The notes beneath the pieces were generated by a model that was given only the letters and a program-made list of their open reading frames with translations, ran no database searches and was not told where the DNA came from. From the NCBI GenBank assembly GCA_018340805.1, contig JACMZG010000008.1:16081384-16145383 (forward strand): DNA of 64,000 nucleotides, written 5' to 3'. Origin of the DNA: Microvelia longipes (taxonomy: Eukaryota; Arthropoda; Insecta; Hemiptera; Veliidae). Of this stretch, positions 2,471-57,276 are shown one piece after another. Positions within the stretch are counted from its first letter, which is position 1. Every line of letters begins with the position of its first letter. The position numbers and the translations under genes were made by a program.

Positions 2471-2479
2471 CTTTTAACT

Positions 2480-9188: not shown

Positions 9189-12100
9189 CTGTAAAAATTG
9201 TTTAAGTAAGTATGCGCTAAAGTAATATACAAACCAAGTAGTTTAACACATACGATTTCTGTCAGACATGGCCTATAGTTTACATTTTGTCCACCAGGGA
9301 TTTGGCCCCAATTTTCCTATGGGCGCCGCCATCTTGTTTTACCCTTGTAAATGTAAACAAACTAGTTACAGTACTCGACATTATCAACTTTACTTGAAAA
9401 TGTCACTTGGGTAGTTTTTTTTTACATACTTTATATAGTAACATAGTGATTATTACCCTCAAAATAAAAATAAGAAGATTCTGTTCGGCCCTTCTTCTAG
9501 CTAGGCACGCTCGTGGCCCATGTCCGAACGGAAGAAGTAAGTATGGATGAGGTCTACCTTGATACATCTCATCATTCTGAATCCACCTCTCCGGTATGAA
9601 CTCTAGAGCTCGCTTGAAGTTCTTCTCTTGTCTGCAAGCTACCATGTTCTGTGTCATTATCAATGTCTGAAAGAAATTCATCAATATCAATAAATCAGAA
9701 CATTTAAAGTAAACTCAACTAGTTGTGGCGTTACTTTTAGCAGGATCGAAAAAATGTATCCCTGTTTCATACATTATAAAAACGTCAGCAAAAATTGTGT
9801 CAGACCATCAAAACAGATGTCATAGATTTATCTAAATTGCATGATATTTGGAATTTCATGAATTTACATTTCATGCCGTTTCTACTGATATTGGATTCAC
9901 TGTAAAACGACTGACATACTACTACTGATAATCTACAGATAAAATATTATCCCGATCATATTTATTATTATTTGCTCAGCCAACTAAGGTTAAATTAGTT
10001 GATTTTGATTTATTACCAATAATAATAAAATATTAAGATGATCAGCAAGATTATTAGCGGCAGTAAGTCAGTCGTTTCACTGTTAATTCAATATCTGTTC
10101 CAATCTAATCCAATATAGGTTTGATCTTGGTCACCAAACTGGCAAGATGTTTAGCAGATCTCAACAAGACTGTGGCATACTAACTTTCTCGAAAACCCAT
10201 AATCAGACATTCCTTATTAACATCATCGAGTTGTTTAATGTAACAAACTTTCTTATTTCCCTCTAAATTACATTGTGGTATGCAATAAAGCAGGTGAGTA
10301 TAAAACAATAAACAATAACTTTTCAAGATGACCCTTTTAAAAAATTCTAAAGCAGCTAGAGTCCTGATATAAGAGATCAAAGGCGCAAAAGCGAGTTAAG
10401 TATCTTTTTGAAAAAAAAACAAGTATTATACAAACGCTCCAGCCATCCTCGAGCACGAGCTTTGCTCTTTCGAAGATTATTAATTTTAGTTTTTAATGAA
10501 TACAGTGTGCACTTTTGTTTTTAGCAGAATAAACTATTTTTATTTATTTTATTTATTTATTTATTACACTTGACTTACTCCTTTTGGTAATAAGTATCCA
10601 CTTGGTAGCAGAACATCTTGATTTAGATATCTTGACGTTCCCACTGATATTGGATTCAGTCTAAAAGTTTCTTTAAGCACAGCGCGAGTATAATTAGCTT
10701 TTGAGAGAACCGAAGAAGTTATAACATCGGATGATTTTGGCAGAAGGTTTACTGATTCATCGTGCAGTTTTCTTTGACATGCTTGATTTTGACTTAGTCT
10801 GAATAACATGAAGCAACTCGTATAGCTCGTCTAAAAAAATAAAAAAAGTAATTTACTGATTTATGTAATTCCACAATTTCATAAATTTCGCTAATAAATA
10901 GATGACTATAATAGTTACAAGAATAGCTACAGGGACCTCTGCCAGGGACTATTCGGAGCTAATTATGGATGCACCAAGTAATACTTACTGGTGTAGTACT
11001 TGCACCGTGTAGTATAATACAATTTATGCCTACAATTTTACAAGTTGTACTCGGCAAGAATAATTTGTTTTAAAACGGTTGGATGGTAAATCAAACAAAG
11101 ATGTATCATCTGCACATGAAGAGCATTCTACAAACAGTTTTATGATAATTTATAATTAGCGTTCATTTGTCTAAGTTGCCTCAGACAAGCAAGCTGCCAA
11201 ACATGTAATAAACTTTCAAGGCATTAAGGCATAGTAGTTAAAAATTCTTTTAATATGTATGAAAGTGGCTATGACTCTTGAATCTTTAAAATCTTTCATA
11301 TCGGAATATTTTGCAATTGTGAAAGATCTTTAAAAAACCTCACATAACAATACTTTTGCAGACTACACAGTCAAAGGAGTCATATGATGCAGCATAAGAA
11401 GAAAGTAAATAAAGGCTAATATTTAAAGAATGCCTTACAGTGTCCACGCCGCCCAGCAGCAAATCCACTATCATGCCAAGAAGATCCTTCTCGTCTACTC
11501 CTGATAATTTTAAAAACTTAGATACGATGCAGTCTACCTCATCCTTTCCTTTTGAAGATGCTTTAAAATCATTCATGCTTTTCAGCGCTAATCTGTATAT
11601 AAATAAGAAAATAGAGGATTTATTTACTCTATCCAATCACACAAGATTCAGTTTAATTTGGTCCATTTTATCCCATTAAATTATACTTTGCTTCCCTCCT
11701 TCCTAAAAGGAGGTTTCTCTTCTTTTGCATTGCATTAGCAAAAGCATAGCATCTAATTTTTCATCATATGTCAACGTTTTAGAACCTAAAGATTCCAAAA
11801 ATCAAAAAAAATGTGTGCCTACATGTATGTACGAGTGTATTGTTTACAGCTCAAACGGCTGATCCAATTTTAATAAAACTTAGCTTAAAAAACAAATTCT
11901 TTGAGAGGAAGACAGATTTTGGGGTTTATCTAACGCAGCGTATCAAAATGGCATCTCATGTCAAACTTTAAAAACACAATCATTAAAGATTACGAAAAAA
12001 TATTTTTTTGATAAAAAGTGTCTCTAATAAAGTTTTCTAAATAGAAAGAAAACTCTACTACATCTCAAGATTATATCCTGAGTACAGTTCTCAAGATATA

Positions 12101-15100
12101 TCTTGAGAACTGTATATAGATAAGTCATAGCAATTATTACTTGCTAGATGTTGAGAACATAATTACTTTAGTTATAGTAATTATTAGTCTTACATTCCTG
12201 AAAATGCCTCCCACAGTGGAAGGGTAACGTCGGATTCTTTATCTACATTGACGTGGTCACCACCGGAAAGTGTGTCAAAAAGTAAAAGTGTTTATTTGCA
12301 CGGCCTTCCATAGAGTGCCGTATTTCAGTAAAGTATTTTTCTTTAAACATTAATTAACTATTTTTTTGTATAAGTGACATTTATAATTTGTATTTAAATT
12401 TTCTGAAATAAATGCATTAAAAAAAGTCTTTCTAATGATTAATGATGTTTTTGAAGTGTTTGTACTGGAAGAGTCTTTATCCACTAGCACAGTTTTCGAG
12501 ATATTAATATAAATGGATGAGCACATTTTGTGTTAACACGCTAGCTCATAATGTAATGAGCATATAAGTAAATAATTACATACTCCAATATTTTTTAAAA
12601 CTAGTTAGGAAAGTTTTGTTCTATGATGAGCATGTTTTCAATTATATTCTGCAAATTTTAAGTAAGAGATCAAATTTTCAAAAAAAGTTGATTTAAAATC
12701 AAACCTTTCAATCGCTTCCATGTGTTTCTCAAAGAATTTATAAGTTTTAGTCTTAAAAAATTTCCAAATGAATTCAGTACCGTCGGTTTCCAGGATGGAT
12801 TCATTACAGCCCTCAGCAGATTCAACTAAACTATCAGCTATTTGATTTGTAATGCTCAGTAAAGATGATTTTCCAAATAAAGCTGCCCACGTTACTGGAA
12901 AAACCATTTTGTCTGATTATTAGTCATTGTCATAACCCTTTAGGGTCACTTTAACACAATTATTGTATATAACAATATCATATTATGTTAAATTTTCACA
13001 AAAAGTAAATCTTAGCTTAGGTAAGATTATTGCAGGTTAAAATCTAAATGCTAAAGCTCAGTTATTGCTCTGCAATATAAGGGTATTTTTTTTAAAATAT
13101 CAGTAGGGGAAAAGTTGACCCTCGGTGGGAATTTGTTATACATTCCAATTTAGTTTGATATTATTTAGGCGACCAAAGAACCTTCTGTCTGATTGGTATA
13201 GCGTATAGAAGTAAGGCAAACATCTTCCTATTCTCTATTCCTAACTTCCAATTTCTCACTTACATTTGTGAAAAAACTTCAAGTGCTTTAAAAATGTATG
13301 ATTTTATTTGAGTTGCAATAAAATATGTATATACTTATGTATAAGATTTACATTTCATGTTGAGTCTAGATACCAATGGAAGAAAATCATCTATACAGTT
13401 TCCCTTTGAACCGACGTATTGTGCGAGAAATTCTCGCGTTATGCTGTCAGCTGTTGAAAGAAACTGTCTGGTTTCCTGCAATGGACTGACTGGCTGTTGA
13501 AATGCTTGTCTTAGCCTCCACCATTCCTCTCCATTCCTTAACAATCCATTAATTTTTATTAGAGATTATAATTAATTTCCGAAAAGGGAGAGGAAACCCC
13601 ACCATTCAAAGAGGAAGGCATATCTTTCAAAAGGAGAGAGGAAGGTAAACTCCCTAAGAAACTATACATACCACTAGAAACATAAGCTCTATTATACCAT
13701 TAGAGCCAACAAAACAAACTGGACACAACCACTTTTTGTGAAATTTTAAAGACTTGATTTACAACTGAAAGATTTTGAAATTAGGGTAAATTCAAATAAA
13801 AGTTATACCTGCGTATGATATAAAAATTTATAAATTTCGGCGATCATGGCTTTGCTTCTTAAAATTAGTAAATAAATCCAAGCGCGTAAATTGCAATTGG
13901 TTCGTTTATTTAAAATAACCAAAAATTGATAAAGCTTGAAATTAAAGAATTAAATTGTGAGAGGTATAACGAAATTTTATAGGTCTAGGTTGACAAAATG
14001 TTGATCAATTAGGACAAATAACAATTAATATCTTTTTCTTAAACAATTTTTATTCAGTAAAAAATATTACTTAGTTGATTTTACATAGTATAGAATCAGG
14101 TAACGCAGGAGACAATATCGTTAAATACTTACGAAGGGAATAATCCTCCAGAGTTGTAAAGGTTAGGCCTGTCTTTCCTATATTTTTCTATAGCCAGATG
14201 GCTTCTTCTCTTAGGGAATTTCCCTTCTGCTTGAAAAACAGCCTGTATATCAGCAGGGCTGAACACGTTTACAGCTTGTAAACCTGCAATGTTCTCCAGA
14301 ACTACTTCGCCGTATTTTTCTAATTTCTTACTTCCGACTTGATCAAGATGTGAGACATCGTATTCGCCTATATAATTAAAGCTTAGCTAAGTATTCGCAT
14401 ATTGTCTAAAAACTAAAAACGTTAGATGAAGAGAAAGATTAATATGCCTTCGGAGGTGAAGGGTAGATATCGAAGAGAGTTGGTCAGCATTGGAATAAAA
14501 TTTGGTACTGCCCCCGTCACAAAATATCTGGTCACCGTAATGAGCCAGAATATACTAATAACTAAATGGATTATCCGCTCTTAGATTTAACTCAGTTTTA
14601 ATAACTTCTGTGCGTTTATTAACTTCAAATCACTTATTACGCTCTTTATAGACTGAAATAAAAAGAAAGCTTAAATCTTGCAGCCTTTTTGCATATTAAA
14701 TTTTAAATACCTAGTCAGCAAAATAATAAGATAATGTTATTCAATATAAAGAGAAACTTAAAAAAGTATTCGATATTCAATACGCATGGAAGCTGTGAGC
14801 CTTAAAATTTCACTCAACAGTTTTAAAATAGATAATGATAATAGATTTATAAAGCAATAAATACAATTTAAAATACGAAGAGAAAGCACTCGGTTGAGAT
14901 AAATTGGGAGGAAACGCGGAGCAGATGAAACAGACAAAATTATCGCACTATACTCGCTTTGATTTCCCCATTTAACCAATGTAAATATCAATATAAGTTT
15001 TGTCTGCCTATGCGATGGGCTGCTGCTCACATTTAGCATAGGAATCATTTACAGGGCGAGTTAACAGGACTGTATATAGAACTTACAAGGAAAACATAAT

Positions 15101-18100
15101 AACGCAATTAAACATAATTTGTGTACATGATTTTATATTAATAAAAACCCTATTCGTTATTTATGTTGCTAATTTATATATATATTTATATACACCCTGT
15201 ATATAGGCAACTCCATCCGTGGACACCCTGTCCACGGATGGAGTTGCCTATACGTGTAAATGACAAAAAATTTCATTTTTTCGACAAAAAGTCACCATGT
15301 ACCCAGTACCCAAAATGTACAATTTTTTAAAATTCGCCAAGAGAGAAGTAGGTCTAATTTTGATTTTACGACAAAAAGTTATTCTTCAAAAAGTCACTTA
15401 TTTTTAAAAAAAAATCAATTTATGCAATAAAAACATGACAATCATTTTTCACCATTAATTAAAATTATTATTTTTTTTTATTCATTTGTTTTTGTTTTTT
15501 ATTTTGTTTTGATTTAATGAAAACACAAAATCAGCTGATTAATTAATTAATAATAAATGTAAACAAACTCCACGTGTATTTTGTTTTGTACTTTAATAAA
15601 TACTTATGATTTTGATGACTTGATTAAGTAGATTATTACTTTTTTTTATTTGCAATTATTGAAAGTATTATTCGTACTTAAATAATTATTGAACTTGTAC
15701 TAACTAAGACATTATTTTTTCAAAAGTGGTAAGTTAGTGATACCGGCAGCCTTGCTGTTGCCAGAAAACCCATTTTCTTGATATTTATAGACTATGCTCC
15801 ATGTACAGTTACCAATAGTAAGATGTCTACTTCTCTTTCTGTCCCCCAATTGGAGCGGACATTTTTAATTCATATCTTTCGAATCGGCCAATCATAGGCC
15901 TCCAAAATATCCCAATAGGATATAAGACGCTCGAAATCGAGCGTCTGGATCAGAAAATCAGGATCCAACAGAAGAGCAAATCAATACGAAGATCGATCAA
16001 CCTGAAACGATCCAGCAAGAAACCTCGAAGCGATCCAGAGATTGCCGAGAATCACCAACGAAGAGCCTTCGCAAGCTTCTTGTAGACATCTGCTGCTGAT
16101 GACTGACATGGAGTGCCAACGGTGGAGTTGAACTGACTGGATGTGTGTTCTCTACTCACCCTTCTCACCTCTCTCTACTCACCACGGCCTATACGCTGTC
16201 CCTCTCGGGAATTTTTGCGGTGGCTCATCCCTTCAAAGTCAGACGCTGTCCCCAAGGGGAATTCTTGCGTCTGGCTCGTCATAACGGTGCTTGGTAGCCC
16301 TAACGCTGTCCCTCCTGGGAATTCTTGCGTTGGGCTTGTTGGTTGGCTTCCGCTGTCTTCTCAGACGTGCAGGTCGCAGCCAAGTCCTCGCTGTCGTTAA
16401 CACGAACTTGCGACAGGATTTGGTACCAACGGTCCTTGTCAGGACCACCCAGCACCGTCTACGAGGCGGCAGGAAACATCGCTCCAGAAGGCGCCAAGAA
16501 CGATGGGCACGACTGGCAGAAGCAGACTACCAGCTACCGTCATTACTAGACCCTCCACCACCCGTCACCTACACTCTGGAGAACTTCCTCAGCAGTAACC
16601 TCAGAGACCCGAGGCTCACGAAGTTCAATCCCTGCAACACTGCCGTTGTGTGGGATTACACCGAGCAAGATCCCTTGGTAGACGACAACACAAGCCAGCA
16701 GCTCTTCCCGTACTCTCCGTCGAGGCCTGGTATGGAACCAGAAGGCTACCTACCCCATTAAGTCGGGACCACCACGCTACAAACGGTCCTTGTCAGGACC
16801 ACCACGAATATCGAGATTCGCTATCACAAGAAAGTATACCGCACGCCGTATCATTTGGCGCCCAACGTGGGGCTGATTAACATGCTAAATCAGCTTTGGC
16901 GAGAATCGCCCTCCTCTAACTAGAGCTAGCTAAGCACATCAACTCACCACTCTACAATCAACTCGTTTCTACTCTCCTCTACACTACTCTTCTCTACACT
17001 ACTCTCCTCTTCACTACTCTCCTCTACACTACTCTCCTCTACACAACGAATCAGCTCTCGAATGCATCTCCACTTGTCTCCTCTACACTCAATTTCTTGG
17101 ATCGGCTAGAATCCAAGTGGCGCCCAACAACCTCACTAAATCTTCTCAACCTCTCTGAGCTTCACCTCAACTTCTTTATTTCTCTCCACAATGTCCAAGA
17201 GTAGACGTAGGCAACCTAGCCCTGCGAAAGCAGAATCTTCGGCTAGCGCTATTGCCAGCACCGTCGCCTCAAGCCTTATTCAAGCCCTTGCGCAAGTCAA
17301 AATACACGACAAGGAACTTCGAGACTTCCATGGGGATGATGAAGAAAAGCCCGAGACGTTTATTCGACAACTCGAAGACTACTTCTCCATCTTTCAACCA
17401 TGCACCGAGACTCAACTTGAATGGCAACCAAGCATTTAAAATCTTCAGCATTAGAGTGGTGGAAGCCACGACGCGCCACCATAGACTCCTTCGAAGAATT
17501 TAAAATCCTCCTACTCAAGGAATACTCAGGCACGAGACGACTGGATAAAATCCGAGCGAAGATTTTCTCCGAGACTCAAAAGAAGTCTGAAGGTGTTGTA
17601 GACTTCCTCTCACACAAGATAAAGATGATTAAAAGGTTTGACCAACCGTTCGACGAAGCAGAGACATGCGAAGCGTTGGTAGAACTGACAGAGCCAAAGC
17701 TCCAAGTACATCTCTTGTCAAATCTACAGACAACATACACTAATCTCCTAGTAGAAGCAGCCCGGTTCGAGAGACTGTTGAAACTTATGGAAACGGAAAG
17801 GCGAACATATCCACCGACTGCTCCAGCGCGAGATAGCACCAAACCCAATCCATCTGCACCTCCGAAGGCAAATAAACCACCTCCACGCACTAACGAGTTC
17901 TCGTTGCCTCCATGTCGCTACTGCCCATGCGGCACTTTCCACCGAGACTTCCAGTCCTGAAGAACATGCGGCAGGAAAACGAGAACGCGGTCGACACCAA
18001 GGTCGAGGTGAAGACCGCCGAGAGAAAATGGAATCGACCTGCCTCAACCACGCAGCCACACCTGCACGGATCCCACGCATCCGTTTGACTTTCACCGATA

Positions 18101-21100
18101 AAACTATCCACTCAGCCGTCGACTCAGCAGCTTCGCACAATTTCATCCCAAGACGCAACCTGCCGAAAGACACTCTCATTCAACCTACAGACTAAAGGAT
18201 GTTATGCTGGCGGAACCCAGGAAGAATATGCTCATCATTGGGGAAGCAAACATCACGTTTCAAATAGGAGATGAGACACACACCCACCGGTTCGCAGTCG
18301 TCAATGATCTTGTGGAAGGATGCATCCTGGGTCAACCTTGGCTTATCACCAATAAAGCAGTCATGGATTTTGAGCGATCTTGTCTGCACTTCGGGAACCA
18401 CATCCGTCGGGTCGTTTACTGGACGCTAAAACCACCCACGGTATCCAAATTGTCTACTGAGGAAATTATGGAAGCCACAGCAGACACACCTATCAGCGCC
18501 AAAGAACCCCTTCAGCGACTCCTTCGGCAGCACGCCGCACTCTTCTCGTCTGAAGCACCTCTTGGCAGAACCACGTGTACCACGCACGAAATTCACCTCA
18601 CGTCAGATAAACCAATCCGGTGTCCTCAGTACAAATACTCCGATGAAAAGAAACAAGTAATTCAACAGAGTATTACTGAGATGCTGGAACAAGACATCAT
18701 CGAACCCTCAGACTCACCCTTCTCTTCTCCCATTGTTATTGTAAGGAAGAAGGACGGAACTCCGAGGTTCTGTGTCGACTACAGAAGGCTTAACGCCGTT
18801 ACCACTGACATCGCATCACCACTTCCCCACGTGTCGGATACACTGAAAGACCTGGGCGAAGCCAAATACTTCTCTACACTCGACCTCAAATCTGGCTACT
18901 GGCAAGTGCCCATGGATAAGAAGTCGAAGAGATACACCGCCTTCGCAGTACCAGACGGAGGCCTCTTTCAATTCAAGGTCATGCCCTTCGGATTGAAGAA
19001 CGCACCTGCGTCATTCCAGAAGATGATGACTCAAGAAGTCCTAGTAGGGTACCTGCGCAAGTTTGCTATAGCCTACCTGGACGACATCATCGTCTACTCT
19101 AACTCTCTCGAAGAACATCTTCATCACCTAAGTCTCGTCTTGGAACGACTCCAACGCCACGGACTTACCTGTTCTTTGGGAAAATGTTCCTTCATCAAGA
19201 CGGAACTACACTACCTGGGTCACCAAGTCACCAGCAACGGTAACTCACCACAATCACGCCACGTTGAAGCTTTAAAATCGGCAAGCATTCCTACGAGTCG
19301 TAAAGAAGTCCGATCCTTCCTCGGAATCTGCAACTGGTTACGAGAGTACGTACCTCAGTTCGCCATCATCGCCGCACCGCTCACCGACCTACTATCTACC
19401 AAGAAAAGATGGTGTTGGAACGCCACGGCTCAAGCTTCTTTCGACCAACTCAAACACATCCTTAGCCAACCTTTGGATTTAAAACGTCCTGAACCAGAGC
19501 TTCACTTCGTCTTACAGACCGATGCCAGCGGTGTGGAGCTTGGAGCAGCTCTCTACCAAGAAACGCCGACCGGAGAGAAACGCGTCGTATCTTATGCGAG
19601 CGCACGTCTGCGACCGCACGAGAAACGCTACCACTCCAACGAGCTGGAATGCCTCGCTATCGTATGGGCTATCAAGCGCTACCGGCCGTACTTGGAGAAT
19701 AAGCACTTCATCCTCCGTACCGACAACAAGGCGATGACCTGGCTTCAGTCTCTCAAAGACAAGAACGCCAAACTTCTCAGATGGTCTCTCCAACTCCAGG
19801 AGTACAACTTTACTCTACAGCATGTTAAGGGAATCGAGAACCATCTTCCTGATGCTCTCTCCAGACACCCTTGCATGGAGGAGTGCGACCTGGAGGAAGA
19901 CAACGATAAAGAATCCCCAAGCTCCGTCCAGAAAACAGAAGAAGTCGAAACCTCCGCAGCAGTTCTGGAGATCACTTCACTACCTACACGAATTCTCCAA
20001 GCTCAAGAAGACTCAGACCATATGCAACGTATGATCCACCAGTGGGAAAGAGTGCATCGCATTCCTGCCAACAGACGCTCACACGAAGACACTCTGTACT
20101 ACAATAACTTCACCGTCAGAGACGGGCACATCTACGAGGTCGACGGAGAAGGTGTTAAACCGTTAGTACCAGACGAGATGGTCCCCTACGTCCTACGGGA
20201 ATACCACGACTCAACTCACGCAGGCCACCCCGGTAGGGATGAGACTCTCCGAGCCATCCGACGCCGATACTTCTGGGACACCATGCGGAAGGACGTCACC
20301 CGCTATGTGAAACAGTGTGTAACCTGCGTTCAACATAAGAAACACATACCTCGATCTAAAGAGACACAACAACCCAGACAGGCAGAGAGACCATGGGATA
20401 CGATGTCAATCGACCTCATGGGACCCTACCCAGAGACACCAAGAAAGAAGAGGTTTATCTTCACGGTAGTGGACGTCTTTTCAAAATGGATGGAGGCGTT
20501 TCCACTAAGCTCAACCGACACGAAACTTCTCGTCTCAACTCTCGAACGTGAGATCTTCCCACGCTTCGGCTACCCGAGAGTGTTGTTAACGGACAACGGA
20601 CCCCAGTTCCTGAGTCGTCAATGGGCAACATTCTGTGAGAAGAACCACATCGAACATCACCTAACCCCACCTTTCCATCCAAGAGGAAACCCGGTAGAGC
20701 GGAAGAATCAAGACCTTAAGGTCGGTCTCCGACTCCACCTACTCAACGAAGATCACCGCAGCTGGGATCTGCACATCCCCCAGGTACTCTTCACGCTACG
20801 CACACGACGAAACGAAGCCACCCAGAAAACTCCAAGCGAGATCCTTTACGGCGAAAATCTCCCTAGACCTGGAGACTGGGATCTTCCTCAACATCCTTTC
20901 GAGGAAAATACCACCGAAGCTAGGCAGGTTCGACTCAACCAAGCCAGCGCTTCGCAACAAAAGTACAATCAGGCCCGTTTCTCCGAGCCTAAAGAACCTC
21001 TCTACACACCAGGGCAACTAGTCTTCGTTAAGACTAATCCCACCTCTAACGCTAACGCCGGTGTTTTAGGAGCATTCCGACCCAGATGGAACGGACCTTT

Positions 21101-24100
21101 CACCATAGTGCGTCGAAGTGGTGCAGGCACCTACGTCATCAGTGATGGTCAAGAGGAATACACTCAACACGCTGACAGACTTCGCCCTGCACACACTCCA
21201 CCTCCGGACATCGATCCTTTTGAAATCGAAGAAGAGGACTCCGAATAACCTCCTTCGAATTCTACACTTGTAAATATCTTTTATTAGTAATTTTTTTACC
21301 TTAGTTCAATTCACTTACCTATCTAGTCATTTTATTGTAAATACTCATTAAGTTAATTTGTAAATAGTAATTTTGATAAAGACTGTGCCTAGTCTTAAGT
21401 AATTGTAAATTGTTGTTTTTTCTTTTAGTCATTAACTGATGTGAAAAGCGCTATGCCTTAGCGTCATCAGAATTCGTTCGTACACTGTGTCTAGTGATAC
21501 TTGTTGTTAGTTTAAGTTAGTGTTACTTGTTGTCTTTAGTTTAAGTTACTTAGTTTAAGTTAAATTTTTTTATTAATTTAAGTTTGTTAATTACTTTAAT
21601 TTTATTTGTAATAAATTATTCCACCACTTAAGTCGATAAATATAAGAAAAGCGGGTTTTCGTGTCTAAAGTAGGGTGGATTGATACCGGCAGCCTTGCTG
21701 TTGCCAGAAAACCCATTTTCTTGATATTTATAGACTATGCTCCATGTACAGTTACCAATAGTAAGATGTCTACTTCCTTTCTGTCCCCCAATTGGAGCGG
21801 ACATTTTTAATTCATATCTTTCGAATCGGCCAATCATAGGCCTCCAAAATATCCCAATAATATAAGACGCTCGAAATCGAGCGTCTGGATCAGAAAACGA
21901 GATCAGAAAATCAGGATCCAACAGAGAGCAAATCAATACGAAGATCGATCAACCTGAAACGATCCAGCAAGAAACCTCGAAGCGATCCAGAGATTGCCGA
22001 GAATCACCAACGAAGAGCCTTCGCAAGCTTCTTGTAGACATCTGCTGCTGATGACTGACATGGAGTGCCAACGGTGGAGTTGAACTGACTGGATGTGTGT
22101 GTTCTCTACTCACCACGGCCTATACGCTGTCCCTCTCGGGAATTTTTGCGGTGGCTCATCCCTTCAAAGTCAGACGCTGTCCCCAAGGGGAATTCTTGCG
22201 TCTGGCTCGTCATAACGGTGCTTGGTAGCCCTAACGCTGTCCCTCCTGGGAATTTTGCGTTGGGCTTGTTGGTTGGCTTCCGCTGTCTTCTCAGACGTGC
22301 AGGTCGCAGCCAAGTCCTCGCTGTCGTTAACACGAACTTGCGACAGGATTTGGTACCAACGGTCCTTGTCAGGACCACCCAGCACCGTCTACGAGGCGGC
22401 AGGAAACATCGCTCCAGAAGGCGCCAAGAACGATGGGCACGACTGGCAGAAGCAGACTACCAGCTACCGTCATTACTAGACCCTCCACCACCCGTCACCT
22501 ACACTCTGGAGAACTTCCTCAGCAGTAACCTCAGAGACCCGAGGCTCACGAAGTTCAATCCCTGCAACACTGCCGTTGTGTGGGATTACACCGAGCAAGA
22601 TCCCTTGGTAGACGACAATACAAGCCAGCAGCTCTTCCCGTACTCTCCGTCGAGGCCTGGTATGGAACCAGAAGGCTACCTACCCCATTAAGTCGGGACC
22701 ACCACGCTACAAACGGTCCTTGTCAGGACCACCACGAATATCGAGATCCGCTACCACAAGAAAGTATACCGCACGCCGTATCATTGACGATATTAATAAT
22801 ATGTTTACTAAAGCTAATTTAAATAACTTTTTAATTTTTTAAATTTTTATTAATTCAAGATGTTAACGCAAGAACAGAGAATATACTTGGTTCAGTGTTA
22901 CGGTATTGGGGACGTAACATACGCTCGAGCTATAGAACTGTTTCATATTAGATTTCCTAATGTTAACGCAACCAGGCAAAATTTAAAAAAAAATTGAAAA
23001 ATTTGTGCAAACCGGCAGTCCGACGTAAAAAAGCAGAGAAAAGAATAATGAAGACGACGCAGCAACATTGTTGGTACTAGATTCCGTAAGGGATAATCCC
23101 TCCAAGTCGCTCAGAATCAGACAGCAGGAACTAATGATCAGTAAATCTCACATACAGAAAATTTTGAAAGTAAACCAATACCATCCATATAAACCTCATT
23201 TTCTACACAAACTAGAAGACGGAGACGACGCACTAAGACTTGACTTTAGTTTGACATTAGGTTATATTACTTTATTTATATCGTTGACTTTAGTTTGACA
23301 ACGAATAATATTAAGCGACGAATCGACTTTTAGTACCAACGGACATGTATCCTCACAAAACGCACGATACTGGACACAGGACAATCCAATTATTCTATTA
23401 CTACAAACAGTCAAAAATTTAAAAAAGTAAATGTATGGTGCGCCATGACACCAACAAAATAATTGGACCATATTTTTTAGACGGGGCACTGAACCAAGAC
23501 AGCTACTTACATTTATTAGACAATTTTTTTGGCCACAGTTAGACGAAGAAAATTTAGACTTTAGACAAAAAATGCATTTCCAACAAGATGGATGTCCGGC
23601 GCATTCAACCTATAACGTCAGAGATTGGTTAGACCATAAATTTCCAGGAAAATGGATAGGACGATTTGGACCTATTGCTTGGCCTGCGCGTTCCCCTGAC
23701 CTAACAACAATGGATTTCTTTCTGTGGGGTACTTGAAAAACAGAAAGTATTTCACGAAACTGTTCCTCATGATGTAAATATTTAAAAAACAAGATACGAG
23801 AAGCAGTGGAAACAGTGAACCGAAGAAATGTTAGGTTAGGCAGAGTCTATAATGAATTCAAGAAAAGATTAGAACTGTGCGTCGAACGTGGTGGTTTACA
23901 TATTGAATAATACGACTGCGTTATTTTACTTTTCCTTATTTTTCTTACTTTAGATTTTTTATTTATTTATTTAGATTTAGAACATTGTATTTATTAAATA
24001 CATAGTAGAACAGATTTAATATGTAGTTTGTTTACATTTATTATTAATTAATTAATCAGCTGATTTTGTGTTTTCATTAAATCAAAACAAATAAAAAAAC

Positions 24101-25441
24101 AAAAACAAAAGAATAAAAAAAAAATTTAATTAATGGTGAAAAATGATTGTCATGTTTTTATTGCATAAATTGATTTTTTTTAAAAATAAGTGACTTTTTG
24201 AAGAATAACTTTTTGTCGTAAAATCAAAATTAGACCTACTTCTCTCTTGGCGAATTTTAAAAAATTGTACATTTTGGGTACTGGGTACATGGTACGAAAC
24301 TTTTAGTCTGCTCAATCTTCGTTTCAAAACAAGCAAAAATTTTTATAAAGAGTGACTTTTTGTCGAAAAATGAAATTTTTTGTCATTTACACGTATAGGC
24401 AACTCCATCCGTGACACCCTGAATATATATAGTGGGCACGGATATTTTAGGACCTACTTACACAAAATCGGGAAGCATCAGTCTTCTGAATGTCTCTATT
24501 GCCCTGGTCTCATTGACAACGTAGAACATACTTTTTTTGATTGTACTAAATGGACCAACGAGAGACTAAATCTAACCATGATATATGGGCCAATCCACCC
24601 GACACCATAGTAAATGTCATGCTCAAAAACGAGGACTCGTGGGAAATGATCAATACCTTGCTGAGAACCATCCTGCGAGCTAAAAAAGGTGATTTAGACA
24701 ATGTTATATAGGAGCACTTTACCAATACTGTAGTTATAATTTATTTAATATTTTATTTATTTTTTATTTATTTATTTATTTATTTATTTTTTATTTTTTT
24801 TTTTTTTACTATATTATTATTACTTTTTTTATTTTATTTATTTATTTTTTTTTTTTTATTATTTTTTTTTCTTTTCTTTTTTATTTATTTATTTCATTTA
24901 TTTTTATTTTTTTATTTTTTTTTGTTAGGTTTTGAGGTCGGTTCTAGGCGTTGCAGATTTCCTTGCAACGTCTGGACCCACATTAAAGCTTCGACAAAAG
25001 GAGACATAGGGGGTAAAATGGGAGGGAGCCGGAAGGCTCAAGATAAGACCTAGCCTGAAGTAATGTGAATAACGGTTCCAGCTAGGTTTAAGGGGTTTCG
25101 CGGAGTGAGTTTTAGTTGGTATGAGGCAGACCCTGAGTCCAACACTGTTGACAGACCGCTGTCTTCGTGCGTAAATGCATTTCTCTCTCTTTTTTGGTAA
25201 CATTTTTCCCGCAAGAAAAATTTTGCCAGAAAAAAAAAAAAAAAAAAAAAAACATTTTTGCGGTAGCTAAGAAGTGTTCAAAATGCATACCTGTAATATA
25301 CTGCCATGACGTCCCTACGATAGGATACTTTTTCGGGCCTGGTATTTCTGCTATGGTCTTGTATGATCTTTTACTACCCACTGGTTCAAGAGTATCTCTA
25401 GCCAATACTTTGAGGGAGTTGCGTAAAGATGAAAATATCAT
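9078..25441 (-). CDS. CYP302A1: Mitochondrial cytochrome P450, ecdysteroid 22-hydroxylase (disembodied)
   Basis: It hydroxylates C22 of 2,22-dideoxyecdysone in mitochondria of ecdysone-making cells. Eight exons: 25291-25441, 14133-14367, 13352-13536, 12705-12894, 11439-11592, 10579-10830, 9457-9666 and 9078-9188. All have GT/AG borders and matching phases, and sum to 1488 nt (495 codons plus stop), close to the fly protein's length. The N-terminus is short, basic and Ser-rich, as in a mitochondrial presequence. Landmarks: IPGPK 33-37, KRRSHLAIEKYRKDRPNLY, NGEEWWRLRQ, I-helix GGVDT 301-305, ExxR 359-362 (ETFR), PERW 414-417 and heme loop PFGHGPRACLARR with Cys at about 443. The RRSHLA, EWWR and HGxRxCxARRxAEQN block separates this from CYP315, CYP314 and CYP301. 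No stop or frameshift interrupts it. Intron 1 is about 10.9 kb and packed with transposons. Confidence 0.9.
9457..9666 (-). CDS. CYP302A1: CYP302A1 exon 7 (heme loop)
   Basis: It encodes TLIMTQNMVACRQEKNFKRA, FIPERW and PFGHGPRACLARRRAEQN. The donor GTAATA follows ILR. The open frame that reads on past it to 9403 is intron. Confidence 0.92.
10579..10830 (-). CDS. CYP302A1: CYP302A1 exon 6
   Basis: It continues the I-helix with TSYTSCFMLFRLSQNQ, then the K-helix AVLKETFRLNPISVGTSR, ending LLPKG. The acceptor is TTTTTTTAG and the donor GTAAGT. Confidence 0.9.
11439..11592 (-). CDS. CYP302A1: CYP302A1 exon 5
   Basis: It encodes LALKSMNDFKASSKG to the I-helix end LLLGGVDT. The acceptor is TTATATACAG and the donor GTAAGG, splitting the I-helix. 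Confidence 0.88.
12083..12114. repeat. Perfect 32-bp palindrome
   Basis: TACAGTTCTCAAGATA is followed immediately by its exact reverse complement, with no spacer. It lies in intron 4 of CYP302A1, in a repeat-like stretch at 11815-12125 that has TGTATGTACG and CCAATTTTAATAAAACTT phrases resembling the element at 1640. Confidence 0.9.
12705..12894 (-). CDS. CYP302A1: CYP302A1 exon 4
   Basis: It encodes TWAALFGKSSLLSITNQIAD to ...FEKHMEAIE. The acceptor is TTTTTCCAG and the donor GTTTGA. The ETDG...FIWKFFKT segment matches the equivalent dib region. Confidence 0.88.
13352..13536 (-). CDS. CYP302A1: CYP302A1 exon 3
   Basis: The exon starts with G, completing Ser, then NGEEWWRLRQAFQQPV, the C-helix WxxxR region, and ends ...SRLNMK plus T. 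The acceptor is GATTGTTAAG, which has a weak pyrimidine tract. The donor is GTAAAT. Confidence 0.85.
14133..14367 (-). CDS. CYP302A1: CYP302A1 exon 2
   Basis: It encodes EYDVSHLDQVGSKKLEKYGE through KRRSHLAIEKYRKDRPNLYN to GGLFPS. The acceptor is ATTATATAG and the donor GTAAGT. The start codon track misses it because no ATG opens it. Confidence 0.88.
15231..15569. repeat. Left terminal inverted repeat of the DNA transposon
   Basis: It runs from TCCACGGATGGAGTTGCC to TGTAAACAAACT and pairs with 24025-24421. Just outside, 15202-15223 is the exact reverse complement of 15231-15252 around CACCCTG (15224-15230). The end is therefore a 22-bp-arm palindrome. Confidence 0.85.
15920..15946 (+). promoter_or_regulatory. 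LTR TATA box followed by a 22-nt hairpin
   Basis: ATATAA (15920-15925) abuts AGACGCTCGA-AA-TCGAGCGTCT (15925-15946), a perfect 10-bp-arm inverted repeat. It is positioned where transcription would start about 25-30 bp downstream. The same arrangement occurs in the 3' LTR at 21860-21886. The start site itself is inferred. Confidence 0.6.
16185..16340 (+). repeat. Three tandem hairpin units in the LTR
   Basis: Each unit of about 55 bp reads ACGCTGTCCC...GGGAATTCTTGCGT. The inner TCCC/GGGA and outer ACGC/GCGT pair to form a two-step stem. In unit 2 the outer stem is AGACGC/GCGTCT, and in unit 3 AACGC/GCGTT. The stems differ in sequence but stay paired. The units are repeated in the 3' LTR (about 22115-22270). 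Confidence 0.8.
16856..16873 (+). other. Primer-binding site, tRNA-Lys type
   Basis: TGGCGCCCAACGTGGGGC starts 2 bp after the LTR. It is the exact complement of the 3' end, including CCA, of the insect tRNA-Lys(CTT) as I remember it. It primes minus-strand DNA synthesis. Confidence 0.9.
16970..17046 (+). repeat. Pyrimidine-rich short tandem repeat in the gypsy leader
   Basis: CTACTCTCCTCTACA-type units of about 15 bp are repeated about five times between the primer-binding site and the gag start. Confidence 0.8.
17191..17960 (+). pseudogene. Gypsy gag, frame-broken
   Basis: This is the structural capsid/nucleocapsid polyprotein. Frame 1 runs from ATG 17191 to a stop at 17439 (basic N-terminus, then LEDYFSIFQP). 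The protein then continues in another frame from about 17421 (ALEWWKPRRATIDSFEEFKI) to 17960, ending near a Cys/His cluster (CRYCPCGTFH). The W-W core and the GTRRLDKIRAKIF segment are typical gypsy gag. The frame change falls mid-capsid, where programmed shifting is not expected, so it reads as a mutation. Confidence 0.8.
17961..18203 (+). pseudogene. Gypsy protease N-terminal half, out of frame
   Basis: A basic stretch leads to IHSAVDSAASHNFIPRRN (GAC at 18121), the place of the retropepsin active site. The usual D-S/T-G reads D-S-A. A stop follows at about 18193. The second half (GEANITFQIG...ILGQPWL) sits in the frame of the long pol ORF. Confidence 0.7.
18204..21248 (+). CDS. pol: Gypsy Pol: protease end, reverse transcriptase, RNase H, integrase
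   Basis: 1014 codons are open. Residues 1-65 finish a retropepsin (ILGQPWL). RT shows FCVDYRRLNAVT, STLDLKSGYWQV, FGLKNAPASFQ and catalytic YLDDIIVYS (about 290-298). RNase H starts at QTDASGVELGAAL (about 438) with NELECLAIVWA and RTDNKAMTWL. Integrase has an HHCC zinc motif (HAGH...CVTCVQHKK), then SIDLMGP, LTDNGPQF and NPVERKNQ as the D-D-E triad with usual spacing. A basic C-terminal fold with FRPRWNGPF and HADRLRP follows. There is no chromodomain and no env ORF afterwards. All catalytic residues are present, so this half could still be active; the break upstream in gag suggests it is not made normally. Confidence 0.95.
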   Translation: MLAEPRKNMLIIGEANITFQIGDETHTHRFAVVNDLVEGCILGQPWLITNKAVMDFERSCLHFGNHIRRVVYWTLKPPTVSKLSTEEIMEATADTPISAKEPLQRLLRQHAALFSSEAPLGRTTCTTHEIHLTSDKPIRCPQYKYSDEKKQVIQQSITEMLEQDIIEPSDSPFSSPIVIVRKKDGTPRFCVDYRRLNAVTTDIASPLPHVSDTLKDLGEAKYFSTLDLKSGYWQVPMDKKSKRYTAFAVPDGGLFQFKVMPFGLKNAPASFQKMMTQEVLVGYLRKFAIAYLDDIIVYSNSLEEHLHHLSLVLERLQRHGLTCSLGKCSFIKTELHYLGHQVTSNGNSPQSRHVEALKSASIPTSRKEVRSFLGICNWLREYVPQFAIIAAPLTDLLSTKKRWCWNATAQASFDQLKHILSQPLDLKRPEPELHFVLQTDASGVELGAALYQETPTGEKRVVSYASARLRPHEKRYHSNELECLAIVWAIKRYRPYLENKHFILRTDNKAMTWLQSLKDKNAKLLRWSLQLQEYNFTLQHVKGIENHLPDALSRHPCMEECDLEEDNDKESPSSVQKTEEVETSAAVLEITSLPTRILQAQEDSDHMQRMIHQWERVHRIPANRRSHEDTLYYNNFTVRDGHIYEVDGEGVKPLVPDEMVPYVLREYHDSTHAGHPGRDETLRAIRRRYFWDTMRKDVTRYVKQCVTCVQHKKHIPRSKETQQPRQAERPWDTMSIDLMGPYPETPRKKRFIFTVVDVFSKWMEAFPLSSTDTKLLVSTLEREIFPRFGYPRVLLTDNGPQFLSRQWATFCEKNHIEHHLTPPFHPRGNPVERKNQDLKVGLRLHLLNEDHRSWDLHIPQVLFTLRTRRNEATQKTPSEILYGENLPRPGDWDLPQHPFEENTTEARQVRLNQASASQQKYNQARFSEPKEPLYTPGQLVFVKTNPTSNANAGVLGAFRPRWNGPFTIVRRSGAGTYVISDGQEEYTQHADRLRPAHTPPPDIDPFEIEEEDSE
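21249..21680 (+). other. Gypsy 3' untranslated region and polypurine tract
   Basis: AT-rich non-coding sequence with a degenerate TTTAAGTTA repeat (about 21510-21590). It ends in AAAGTAGGGTGGA (21667-21679), the likely plus-strand primer, one base before the LTR. Confidence 0.7.
21681..22783 (+). repeat. Gypsy 3' LTR
   Basis: 1103 bp, nearly identical to the 5' LTR. Differences: a shorter CTCACC stretch near 22100, a missing base in the third hairpin unit, and a short AAAACGAGATCAG insertion near 21894. It ends GTATCA followed by TTGACGATATT. Confidence 0.93.
22860..23910 (+). pseudogene. Tc1/mariner-IS630-type transposase, decayed
   Basis: The transposase of the inverted-repeat element. 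ATG at 22860 opens MLTQEQRIYLVQCYG with RFPNVNATRQNL, a helix-turn-helix of the kind seen at the N-terminus of many insect transposases. After several frame changes, RDNPSKSLRIRQQELMISKS follows (about 23090), then FQQDGCPAHSTYNVRDWLD and WPARSPDLTTMDFFLWG (about 23580-23730), the second and third acidic-residue regions of the DDE core. The end RRLELC-like KRLELCVERGGLHIE stops at 23908-23910. At least four frameshifts or stops make it inactive. Confidence 0.85.
24025..24421. repeat. Right terminal inverted repeat of the DNA transposon
   Basis: It is the inverse of 15231-15569. An extra stretch of about 60 bp (around 24294-24360) is absent from the left copy. It terminates CCATCCGTGACACCCTG at 24421, directly against an R1-like LINE fragment. 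Confidence 0.85.
24422..25251 (+). mobile_element. R1-like LINE 3' fragment with 3' UTR and poly(A)
   Basis: The frame NIYSGHGYFRTYLHKIGKHQ continues to a Cys-Cys-His-Cys knuckle (CLYCPGLIDNVEHTFFDC), the C-terminal signature of R1-clade reverse transcriptase ORFs. After a 1-bp frame change it reads LLRTILRAKKGDLDNVI and stops near 24712. A T-rich low-complexity stretch (24740-24925) interrupts it, then about 300 bp of 3' UTR and 22 A residues end at 25251. The coding part abuts the DNA transposon terminus at 24421. The poly(A) ends 40 bp before CYP302A1 exon 1 on the opposite strand. Confidence 0.8.
24740..24925. repeat. T-rich (TTTA)n low-complexity tract
   Basis: About 185 bp of T with interspersed A (TTTATTTATTTA and long T runs), apparently expanded within the LINE 3' region. 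Confidence 0.9.
25291..25441 (-). CDS. CYP302A1: CYP302A1 exon 1
   Basis: ATG at 25441-25439. It encodes MIFSSLRNSLKVLARDTLEP, then the IPGPK hinge, and ends in ...WQYIT plus one base (GTATGC donor). A TTTTTACAG just upstream of GCAAAAAGCGCTATG could be the acceptor of a 5' UTR intron. Confidence 0.85.
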
Positions 25442-25688
25442 AGCGCTTTTTGCCTGTAAAAATATGTTTTTTCTCGTTACGTTCCATTTTGATATGTTAT
25501 TGCTATAATGAAGATTATTAAATAAACCAATGCCTCTAAATAAGATTAAAACAACTAAAATAGAAATACTAAAAATTACTTAAAATACGATGTATTATTA
25601 AGTATTAAACATTTTTATAAAATACCTAATAAATAATATAATTATAAACAAGGTAAAAGAGTAAATTTTTTGGACTGGTGTGATATAT
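25442..25688 (-). promoter_or_regulatory. Remaining proximal upstream region of CYP302A1
   Basis: Only 247 bp separate the CYP302A1 start codon from the Penelope-like element. The stretch is AT-rich, with TTTTTACAG at about 25455 (read on -) as a possible 5' UTR acceptor. I can name no specific factor site. Confidence 0.3.
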
Positions 25689-25897
25689 ATTTAGAATTTA
25701 AATTTCTTGAAGACTACAGTCCTTTATAAATATTAATTTATTTAATAACCTTTACATAAATCTTCACAACGTTTCATTGAGCGAAGCTCAACATCTTCAG
25801 GTGAAATCAAATGAAACTAAATTTGTAATGTAAAAAATTTTTTTATAAATGAAATATAAAATTTAAATTAATTTAGAAAATGACAGAAAATGTCAGT
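25689..25897. repeat. Left inverted terminal repeat (pLTR-like)
   Basis: Reverse complement of 27950-28157. It carries the inverted form of the hairpin motif TTGAGCTTCGCTCAA (25775-25795). Confidence 0.85.
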
Positions 25898-25904
25898 AAA
25901 CTAT

Positions 25905-26133
25905 TCAACCATACAACATCAAAATTGCTCAAAAAAATCCATCTAATCTAAAATCTCGTTTTTATTCAAAAATCAAGGATCCTATTACAACTTTAGACCG
26001 TTCAAATATAGTTTATCGAATTCCTTGTAAAAATTGTGATAAAACATATACCGGTGAAACCTCACAGTTATTTCTAAACAGGCTTAGGGTCCATAATAAA
26101 AATGCAGACAATTTAGACACAAATACAGCTTTA
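25905..26133 (+). pseudogene. Penelope GIY-YIG fragment, first copy
   Basis: Nearly identical at DNA level to 26501-26731. It codes NIVYRIPCKNCDKTYTGETS, the Y-x-I-x-C and T-Y-x-G-E-T core of a GIY-YIG nuclease. It is followed by sequence that normally lies before this domain (ALYLKQNNYPATLVDRLI-like), so it is the result of a local tandem duplication with a period of about 597 bp. Confidence 0.75.
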
Positions 26134-26316
26134 TATTTAAAACAGAACAATTACCCGGCAACACTTGTTGACCGATTAATTAAAGAATACATTAAAGGTA
26201 ATTTAAATGATGATAAAGTCGAGAATTTAAATTTAAATGTCAATATTCATTCCACTCCTATTTCATATAATCAATCCCGTGTTAATCTCAATTCAACTTC
26301 ACAAAATCCTTTAAAT

Positions 26317-26808
26317 TTGACATCTCCAATTAGTCCTATAGTATATAACAAATCTCCAATAACTTCAATACACAAGAATCTATCAAAAAATAGTAATAAC
26401 AATCCTTCTACAAATATAAATTCAAATAACACCAATGTTCAAAATCCTAAATTTGCATCCATACCTTATTTCGGAAATCCTACTAAACAGATTATAAAAC
26501 TATTCAACCCATACAACATCAAAATTGCTCAAAAAAATCCATCTAATCTAAAATCTCGTTTTTATTCAAAAATCAAGGATCCTATTACAACTTTAGACCG
26601 TTCAAATATAGTTTATCGAATTCCTTGTAAAAATTGTGATAAAACATATACCGGTGAAACCTCACAGTTATTTCTAAACAGGCTTAGGGTCCATAATAAA
26701 AAATGCAGACAATTTAGACACAAATACAGCTATAGCGGAACATATGACCAAGAAAAACATAAAATTGATAACGACAATGTTAAAGTATTACATTCCGAAA
26801 ACATTTGA
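26317..26808 (+). pseudogene. Penelope ORF 3' part with GIY-YIG endonuclease
   Basis: 163 codons are open. An Asn/Ser-rich linker is followed by KLFNPYNIKIAQKNPSNLKS, NIVYRIPCKNCDKTYTGETS and LFLNRLRVHNKKCRQ. After a frame slip near 26700 the expected AEHM-type segment and DNDNVKVLHSEN follow; RRILESLY appears in another frame to about 26850. The endonuclease nicks the target for retrotransposition. Broken and without the reverse transcriptase. Confidence 0.75.
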
Positions 26809-26882
26809 ACAAACGACGCATTTTGGAAAGTCTTTACATCAAAACTGACCCCAACACATGAATAAAAAACAGGATACTATAA

Positions 26883-27823
26883 TACGACACACGGCTAAAA
26901 TCAATTGACAGCCCGCCAAAATCTCAATGCTTTCAACCCTCTTTTTTTTAATAAAAAAATCCCTTCTTTTATGTAACAAAAAAAATTCCCTACTCTGGCA
27001 ACACTGAAAGTCAGGTTATGTTTTGAATTTTATTATTTGTTTTTATTTGATATCGAATTTTTTTATTTTTTAAAATTATTTATTTACTTTTTAAGAGGAA
27101 TATTGTTGTATCTTATAAATTTACCAACTAAGTGTTGCTTTAAATTGTTCGGGAAGTATGAATTAAGTGGAGTTAAAGTGTGTTAATTACGTAATGCAAT
27201 GGATCATAATAGTTCTTTGATAAAAGTTTGACGATTTAAGTTAAATTGCCAGCTATAATTACTTTTTTCCAAAACAAACTGCTTTTTTGTGTCAAGTTTG
27301 TATAATTGAATGCGTATTGTTTCATATTATAAAAATAATATGACACAATATGCATTCAAGACTTAAAAAAGTCAAGACTGTCATCTATTGAAAGACATGG
27401 CATTTTCAAAAAAAATGCTGTCTTTTGGTTGACGAGCACAGAACCTGCGCTGTACTCAATAGCAAGAATGCTTGAAGAATACGTCAATGTCCATGCGTCA
27501 AATATAGGTACTCAGATCATATTACAACTTCGCAATAATTGGACAAATTGAACAGATTGAATGAAACGAAACGAAACGAAATCAAACAGATCAATATGCA
27601 CAATGAGGAAAATAAAATCGAACAGGAAAATAAAAGCGACGCGAGGTTACAAATATTTTACAACCAGTGTTGCATTTTTATGATTTTATTACGAAAAGGT
27701 ATTTTTTTATAACCGAGGTTGGCATGAGGTGGAGGGGAAAGAGCGGGGTCGGTCTGAACCAATAGAATTTCTTCCCTCACAGATTTTTGGCGCGCTGTCA
27801 ATTGATTTTAGCCGTGTGTCGTA
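26883..27823. mobile_element. 941-bp non-autonomous element with 42-bp inverted repeats
   Basis: TACGACACACGGCTAAAATC at 26883 is mirrored at 27823. The arms match over about 42 bp with one or two mismatches (to GCCAAAATCT). The interior has no coding frame. A near-perfect hairpin lies at 27306-27359 (TTGAATGC...GCATTCAA, arms about 24 bp). It is inserted in the Penelope-like element. No clean target duplication was seen. Confidence 0.75.
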
Positions 27824-27949
27824 CTAACAATATAAATAGCATTTATTCAAATATTTAAATTTAAAAAAACCCCCTAAAAATACAGTGCCTCCGTCTACAA
27901 ATCACCGTTATCTTAATAATCTGTCTATGCCTCCTTAATATTTTGATTC

Positions 27950-55735: not shown

Positions 55736-55849
55736 TATTATTATTATTATTATTATTTTATTTATTATTATTATATTTATTTTATTATTTTATTTTATTA
55801 TTATTTTATTTATTATTATTATTATTATTTATTATTATTATTATTATTA

Positions 55850-55888
<39 letters not shown>

Positions 55889-57275: not shown

Positions 57276-57276
57276 A

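What the first reader, a model, noticed from the sequence alone, without database searches (positions are those of the whole stretch)
14368..25290. Three-level transposon nest inside intron 1 of CYP302A1
Intron 1 of the ecdysteroid 22-hydroxylase contains an IS630/mariner-type transposon (terminal repeats at 15231-15569 and 24025-24421), with a 7.0-kb gypsy element inserted between its left repeat and its transposase start, and an R1-like LINE fragment against its right end. The P450 exons still join perfectly in phase (1488 nt), so a gene essential for moulting seems to tolerate about 10 kb of young insertions. The near-identical gypsy LTRs show the last event is recent and may be polymorphic.
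Basis: partly seen in the sequence, partly recalled or inferred. Interest (0 to 1): 0.75.

Follow-up and report, generated by a model that had tools for sequence, protein, structure and literature searches.

The report
Transposon nest in a moulting-gene intron
The first intron of a true-bug moulting-hormone gene has been swollen from about 0.9 to 10.9 kilobases by three mobile elements that landed one inside another, while the gene itself still reads intact; this is an ordinary kind of event, of some interest because a fly study found this gene class free of such insertions.

Summary
The minus strand carries an intact CYP302A1 (disembodied) gene: 8 exons, 1488 nt, GT-AG introns, within the heteropteran CYP302A1 clade; no other locus of the assembly matched it at 80% or more (86 of 130 candidates scored). 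Intron 1 is 10,923 bp (the other six 268-1112 bp), 92% of it mobile DNA. A LINE 3' remnant was entered at a TA by a Tc1/mariner element of DD41D long-TIR type (ends of ~375-430 bp, 41 residues between D2 and D3, transposase broken), and that by a 7,046-bp Ty3/gypsy. Five gypsy-free mariner copies elsewhere read straight across the gypsy site, with target TTAG duplicated but for one base; seven of seven fetched LINE copies continue across the mariner site. LINE sequence left of the mariner is missing, and the mariner's left end is a palindrome whose core occurs once in the assembly: a private rearrangement. LTRs differ by 3 substitutions in 1089 sites, so the gypsy is recent but not necessarily polymorphic. 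Splicing, expression and polymorphism were not testable, and the protein is on a long branch. Ordinary intronic nest, notable because the five ecdysone P450 genes of Drosophila were reported free of insertions.

The parts
25291..25441 (-). CYP302A1 exon 1 (coding part), ATG to donor GTATGC
14133..14367 (-). CYP302A1 exon 2
9078..13536 (-). CYP302A1 exons 3-8 (13536-13352, 12894-12705, 11592-11439, 10830-10579, 9666-9457, 9188-9078)
   Evidence: p450 Pfam E 7e-58
14368..25290 (-). Intron 1, phase 1, 10,923 bp, 92% mobile DNA
15202..15252 (.). Palindrome at the mariner's left end: an inverted copy of its outermost ~25 bp; its 27-nt core occurs once in the assembly
   Evidence: (94% self-complementary)
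15229..15603 (+). Left inverted end of the DD41D mariner, with GACAAAAA repeats at 15262, 15283 and 15370
15604..15737 (+). Mariner interior left of the gypsy; last four bases TTAG are the target site
15738..16853 (+). Gypsy 5' LTR, TGATAC...GTATCA
16856..16872 (+). Primer binding site TGGCGCCCAACGTGGGG (tRNA-Lys type, recalled)
17421..17957 (+). Gag piece (Retrotrans_gag E 8e-7); gag is split over frames
18204..21248 (+). Open pol ORF, 1014 aa: RT, RNase H, integrase
21681..22783 (+). Gypsy 3' LTR
22784..22786 (+). Second copy of the TTAG target site with one base missing (TTG)
22860..23907 (+). Broken DD41D transposase, several frames
23987..24421 (-). Right inverted end of the mariner
24430..25252 (+). 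LINE 3' part: zf-RVT-like coding piece with a frame change, (ATTT)n tract 24739-24921, 3' end and A-run 25230-25252
25688..28157 (+). GIY-YIG-bearing remnant (Penelope-like, recalled) with inverted ends, 246 bp upstream of the CYP302A1 ATG

Best explanation
An ordinary, probably neutral intronic transposon nest in an intact, single gene. Shown from sequence: complete coding exons and splice sites; a gypsy inserted at TTAG in a DD41D long-TIR mariner; that mariner ending where a LINE resumes at a TA; all three antisense to the gene. Inferred: an intron of about 0.87 kb, like its neighbours, received a 0.8-kb LINE tail; the mariner landed in it; a break and fold-back repair at the mariner's left end removed the LINE's remaining part and left a private palindrome; the gypsy came last. 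The spliceosome removes all of it as one 10.9-kb intron, so it is tolerated because it is intronic. No benefit to the host is needed.
For: Exons and GT-AG introns; best named hits Ranatra 51%, Lygus 48%, Nezara 48%; heteropteran clade of 9 rows with support 100/100 in a tree of 34; no other locus at 80% or more in the assembly (86 of 130 candidates scored). First intron of phase 1, as described for dib in insects and Daphnia (PMC2276477, passages). What is left of intron 1 without the elements is 872 bp; other introns are 268-1112 bp. Five of five gypsy-free mariner copies that cross the gypsy site read GGTAAGTTAGACGATATT there; sister gypsy copy B has a 4-bp duplication, ATAG; among the two LTRs here and three of other copies, most differences are private to one LTR, as expected after insertion. 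The window's LINE starts at the TA of CTCCTTAGTGGGC, and seven of seven fetched copies continue upstream. D2-D3 spacing 41 in the window and in 83 of 120 listed homologues, the other 37 not matched by my pattern.
Against: No RNA evidence of the 25291-14367 junction. LINE sequence left of the mariner is absent (only AT-rich matches of 22-36 nt). The mariner's right flank is AATATA before the LINE's TA, not a clean TA. LTR gaps outnumber substitutions 7 to 3, and sister LTRs too carry private one-base gaps, so base-level assembly errors are possible. 10 of 100 otherwise invariant residues are changed and the branch is 1.1 against a median of 0.52. The gene-sense strand of the intron carries 40 AATAAA hexamers and two strong YAG|GTRAGT motifs.
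Confidence: 0.86

Rival explanations
1. The insertions lower or redirect CYP302A1 expression: premature poly(A) or cryptic splicing in the nest, or antisense transcription from the gypsy 3' LTR through exon 1. The allele would be a weak one.
For: 40 gene-sense AATAAA hexamers in the intron; all elements point towards exon 1; the LINE ends 38 bp from the exon and a GIY-YIG remnant lies 246 bp upstream of the ATG; long branch and 10 changed residues of 100.
Against: 495 open codons and all splice sites kept; apparently the only copy. The divergence is spread along the protein and the sister row P0005 is long-branched too, so it looks older than the nest.
Confidence: 0.14
2. The gypsy copy is a recombinant or an assembly mis-join, so its flanks do not belong to one insertion. 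My odds for this fell from about 0.25 after the genome could be searched.
For: No exact target-site duplication of 3-8 nt; LTRs differ more by gaps than by substitutions.
Against: Five empty mariner copies join exactly these flanks, and the duplication is TTAG with one base missing; LTR differences are mostly private to one LTR; both flanks sit in one mariner with matching ends.
Confidence: 0.05
3. The mariner did not enter the LINE; the LINE is a 5'-truncated insertion that happened to land against the mariner. My odds for this fell from about 0.4 after LINE copies could be compared.
For: No LINE sequence left of the mariner; the seven fetched LINE copies are themselves short, so little would be expected there.
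Against: The LINE resumes exactly at a TA, the target of this superfamily, 8 bp after the mariner end, and seven of seven fetched copies run on across it; the missing side is the rearranged one.
Confidence: 0.12

Closest known systems
LTIR DD41D / rosa elements of the Tc1/mariner superfamily (Apismar5.1 of the pea aphid; Lsra); DD41D/VS (Visitor) in bees and vertebrates
   Same: D2-D3 spacing of 41 with a final D; long inverted ends (375-430 bp here, 466 bp in Apismar5.1); about 2.16 kb without the gypsy (Apismar5.1 2,307 bp) (PMC5490172 passages; PMC8472432 passages)
   Different: Terminal sequence differs from the ends printed for the aphid elements; transposase broken; gypsy inside; no phylogeny against these reference elements was made
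Ty3/gypsy retrotransposons without env ('17.6' and 'K02A2.6-like' in database names)
   Same: LTR TG..CA, PBS, RT-RNase H-integrase order; 79% identity over 1014 aa to P0230 of an unnamed public contig; 4-bp target duplication in a sister copy
   Different: No ORF over 26 codons between pol and the 3' LTR, so no env; gag broken; one base of the duplication missing here
Transposon insertions at insect P450 genes (Chen and Li 2007, PMC1852546, passages)
   Same: Insertions in introns and flanks of P450 genes
   Different: There they were at xenobiotic P450s, and all five ecdysone P450s of D. melanogaster, CYP302A1 included, were free of insertions
Inverted repeats pairing in large introns (Shepard et al. 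2009, PMC2773006, passages)
   Same: Oppositely oriented repeats could form a stem that shortens the distance between splice sites
   Different: Proposed for SINE/LINE pairs in vertebrate introns over 50 kb and said to be practically absent in Drosophila; here the two ends of one DNA transposon

Membership tests
CYP302A1 (disembodied) | p450 domain and placement among named CYP302A1 proteins | tested here: met
   Pfam E 7e-58; best named hits CYP302A1; heteropteran clade 100/100; best of the loci compared for six CYP302A1 queries
CYP302A1 (disembodied) | 22-hydroxylase activity | not testable with these tools
   taken from orthology (PMC2276477 passages)
CYP302A1 (disembodied) | residues conserved in the family kept | tested here: inconclusive
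   90 of 100 columns invariant in ten homologues kept; those ten keep 90 of 91-99
DD41D long-TIR (LTIR/rosa) mariner | 41 residues between the second and third catalytic residue, last one D | tested here: met
DD41D long-TIR (LTIR/rosa) mariner | long inverted ends (about 460 bp in aphids) | tested here: met
   375 and 430 bp
DD41D long-TIR (LTIR/rosa) mariner | TA target-site duplication | tested here: inconclusive
   TA directly outside both ends in 2 of the 4 copies whose ends were printed (L019, L022); L020 and L021 have it on the right but a changed left end or flank; in the window the left end is rearranged and the right flank is AATATA before the LINE's TA
DD41D long-TIR (LTIR/rosa) mariner | phylogenetic grouping with Apismar5/Lsra | not tested
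   no reference transposase of that clade in hand
Ty3/gypsy | RT-RNase H-integrase order, LTRs and PBS | tested here: met
Ty3/gypsy | short target-site duplication | tested here: met
   ATAG in sister copy B; TTAG with one base missing here, judged against five empty copies; the exact-match test alone failed
R1-clade LINE | R1-type endonuclease and RT | not testable with these tools
   only a ~95-residue C-terminal piece is left; zf-RVT below cut-off, no convincing PDB relative

The most novel reading that the evidence does not exclude
The mariner's own inverted ends act as a splint for splicing. They lie 874 nt after the donor and 861 nt before the acceptor, and in the pre-mRNA they can pair as a stem of about 360 bp (predicted -475 kcal/mol; shuffled arms -81 on average), looping out 8.4 kb with the gypsy and leaving an effective intron of about 1.7 kb. 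The same stem would be an ADAR or Dicer substrate, and the antisense gypsy inside an ovary-expressed gene could feed small RNAs against that element. The nest would then be buffered by its outer element, and might serve genome defence, rather than merely being tolerated.
Probability: 0.1. Interest if true: 0.65.

Novelty: new member of a known kind. Interest (0 to 1): 0.3.

Why it matters
It is a counter-example, in a true bug and in what looks like the only copy of the gene, to the report that ecdysone-making P450 genes are kept free of transposons (PMC1852546); the exclusion need not hold for introns. It also offers a natural test of whether the paired ends of a DNA transposon can neutralise the splicing cost of a later insertion. 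In itself, nested transposons in an intron are commonplace.

Tried and rejected
Alternative exon 1/2 splice sites: a donor 11 nt upstream paired with an acceptor 14 nt upstream would also keep frame (by reading the sequence, no score computed), but the donor context is poor; rejected in favour of CAG|GTATGC. The missing conserved proline at the junction was first taken as a warning; 5 of the 56 homologues that matched my pattern, of 79 examined, have the same short form (three Daphnia, Thrips palmi, one unnamed), so it is not evidence against the model.

No target-site duplication, hence a recombinant gypsy: held at first from an exact-match test, rejected after the empty copies showed TTAG with one base missing.

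Recursive splicing: the two YAG|GTRAGT motifs of the gene-sense intron (21321, 19171) did not pass my 70% pyrimidine filter; two other YAGGT sites did (19892, 14713), of which 14713 (TAG|GTATTT) is a weak candidate. No ratchet point is claimed.

'Antisense orientation avoids poly(A) signals': tested and not supported; 40 AATAAA on the gene-sense strand against 12 on the other, summed over the parts.

Rfam: nothing at gathering score in the window; in 25.6-28.3 kb three sub-threshold matches (two miRNA families on one AT-rich hairpin, one Streptococcus sRNA), taken as chance. IMG/VR scans for the transposase (17 pattern matches, none confirmed), the LINE piece and a 22-nt end pattern gave nothing. 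The LINE piece has no BLASTP match to the ORF at 43503-44153 and only chance-level PDB matches (ribosomal L34, E 1.7 and worse). Literature searches (rows listed: 16 of 17, 12 of 124, 12 of 22, 12 of 1,438 papers) showed among the listed rows no paper on a transposon inside CYP302A1 of a bug; this is a statement about those listings only.

LTR dating: 3/1089 with a recalled fly rate of about 3-3.5e-9 per site and generation gives roughly 0.4-0.5 million generations (Poisson range about 0.1-1.4 million); not used as a firm claim. The window's 5' LTR is as near to a sister copy's 3' LTR (3 substitutions in 1116, one gap) as to its own partner.

Full report
What the gene is. The minus strand from 25441 to 9078 carries eight exons of 1488 nt in all, with GT-AG at all seven introns and an open product of 495 residues. 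Pfam gives p450 at E 7e-58. Among 107 proteins found (7998 candidates scored), the best named are CYP302A1-like proteins of bugs: Ranatra 51%, Lygus 48%, Nezara 48%. A tree of the window, 31 CYP302A1-like hits chosen by me and two outgroups (34 rows) puts it in a clade of 9 rows, whose named members are all heteropterans, with support 100/100. The host is thus very probably a true bug; its assembly holds 664.6 Mb. In that assembly the protein matches eight exon stretches of this locus at 80-97%; every other match is at 55% or less (57 matches, 86 of 130 candidates scored). Two P450 clusters on another contig, of which I held 10 kb each, score about half as high with six CYP302A1 queries and equal or lower with a CYP12-like one, so they are probably other P450s. 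Best-scoring solved structures are the mitochondrial CYP11A1 and CYP24 (60 of 258 shown).

The exon 1/2 junction. Intron 1 is phase 1, in line with the first phase-1 intron described for dib (PMC2276477, passages). The joined protein is two residues shorter here than ten chosen homologues and lacks a proline that all ten have. Of 79 homologues examined 56 matched my pattern, and 5 of those have the same short form. The protein is divergent as a whole: it departs at 10 of 100 columns invariant in the ten, while each of the ten departs at 1 to 9 of 91 to 99 (in the one with 9, 8 are gaps), and its branch is 1.1 against a median of 0.52.

The nest, outside in. Intron 1 is 10,923 bp; the other introns are 268 to 1112 bp. 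About 92% of it is mobile DNA, and 872 bp remain without it. The oldest layer is a LINE tail at 24430-25252, ending in an A-run 38 bp from exon 1. At least 39 other copies, 94-97% alike, lie in the assembly (40 of 169 candidates scored). Its coding piece changes frame and scores below Pfam's cut-off (zf-RVT), so the R1 label is untested. The window's LINE begins at the TA of CTCCTTAGTGGGC, where seven of seven fetched copies run on upstream (six printed in the sense direction, the seventh by alignment); 8 bp before it the mariner ends at 24421. So the mariner most probably entered the LINE at a TA.

The mariner has inverted ends at 15229-15603 and 23987-24421, with 4 substitutions in 361 aligned sites and one 60-nt gap. 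Its transposase is spread over several frames, but the stretch with the second and third catalytic residues is in one frame and has 41 residues between them. The read-through protein matches 1033 proteins (120 listed), the best at 54%. Long ends with DD41D are the marks of the LTIR group described from aphids (PMC5490172, passages), where I place it provisionally. It is a large family here: 92 matches to one end with 40 of 809 candidates scored. The left end departs from the other copies, of which three of four printed begin CAGGGTGTCCACGG: in the window it is a palindrome of about 51 bp whose 27-nt core occurs once in the assembly. No LINE sequence lies beyond it, only AT-rich matches of 22-36 nt. 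My reading, an inference, is a break with fold-back repair that also removed the LINE's other part.

The gypsy lies at 15738-22783. LTRs end in TGATAC and GTATCA and differ by 3 transitions in 1089 sites and 7 gaps of 41 nt; a five-LTR alignment counts 5 substitutions. Pol is one open frame of 1014 codons with RT, RNase H and integrase, 79% identical over its length to a protein of an unnamed public contig. Gag is broken, and no frame over 26 codons lies between pol and the 3' LTR, so there is no env. G+C is 0.49 against 0.31 in the rest of the window. Five gypsy-free mariner copies read GGTAAGTTAGACGATATT across the site; the window has TTAG on the left and TTG followed by ACGATATT on the right, a 4-bp duplication with one base missing. 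A sister gypsy copy on the same contig is flanked by ATAG on both sides. Most LTR differences are private to one LTR, in sister copies too, as expected from changes after insertion or from small assembly errors.

How it works. All three elements lie antisense to the gene. The simplest account is that the spliceosome removes the nest as one intron and nothing is gained or lost. Against a carefree reading, the gene-sense strand of the intron has 40 AATAAA hexamers (the other strand 12, summed over parts), and the gypsy's 3' LTR points at exon 1. The most interesting alternative is structural: the mariner's ends lie 874 and 861 nt from the splice sites and can pair (duplex -475 kcal/mol; 30 shuffles -81, sd 8), so the outer transposon could loop out the inner one. 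Repeat stems in large introns were proposed for vertebrates and said to be practically absent in Drosophila (PMC2773006, passages). Editing in long intronic hairpins is reported in a bug (PMC10937787, passages), and dib transcript rises with insulin in ovaries of Rhodnius (PMC9819625, passages). Antisense insertions of the endogenous retrovirus Tirant in host 3' UTRs feed small RNAs in fly ovarian soma (PMC13226689, abstract and passages); that work stresses exonic, exported transcripts, which speaks against an intronic source.

Novelty. Nested transposons in introns are common. What is worth noting is the gene: in D. melanogaster all five ecdysone P450s, CYP302A1 included, were reported free of insertions while seven of eight insecticide-resistance P450s were not (PMC1852546, passages). 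This window shows an exception in a bug, in what looks like the only copy. Splicing, expression and polymorphism could not be tested, as no reads are at hand.

Noticed in passing
25688-28157: A remnant with a GIY-YIG match (E 2e-5; Penelope-like, recalled), ~213-nt inverted ends 97% alike and an internal ~238-nt direct duplication 99% alike; it ends 246 bp upstream of the CYP302A1 start codon, so exon 1 is hemmed in by mobile DNA on both sides.
   Followed up: partly
25442-25466: A good-looking splice acceptor (CATATTTTTACAG) lies 12 nt upstream of the ATG on the gene strand, so an untranslated first exon may exist further upstream and 'intron 1' may be the second intron.
   Followed up: no
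15202-15252: Palindrome at the mariner's left end that looks like fold-back repair of a transposon end; its core occurs once in the assembly.
   Followed up: yes
L032-L038 (about 1427-2550): The LINE family seems to exist as short (~0.8-kb) copies: in L032, L035, L036, L037 and L038 of the seven fetched copies the shared part starts at the same 5' point of L032, as in a non-autonomous derivative.
   Followed up: no
G000:C542:15615140-15615969: Mariner-end fragments repeat about every 290 bp, as if a tandem array had formed from the inverted ends.
   Followed up: no
53604-59089: Two near-identical stretches in the same order: 53604-54454 with 57325-58170 (99.4%) and 55235-55744 with 58580-59089 (98.6%), near degenerate RT frames at 52.1-52.7 kb.
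   Followed up: no
60267-60998: ORF of 243 aa with DUF1759 (E 8e-16), recalled as a domain of BEL/Pao elements.
   Followed up: no
34445-35626: Single-exon ORF of 393 aa with Glyco_transf_90 (E 2e-98), a host-like gene about 9 kb upstream of CYP302A1 and facing away from it.
   Followed up: no
363-768 and 2462-3524: Tandem arrays of 48-bp and about 53- and 106-bp units downstream of CYP302A1.
   Followed up: no
32255-32689 (minus): 145-aa ORF with a weak match to the phage-integrase SAM-like domain (E 0.016, below cut-off), possibly a tyrosine-recombinase element remnant.
   Followed up: no
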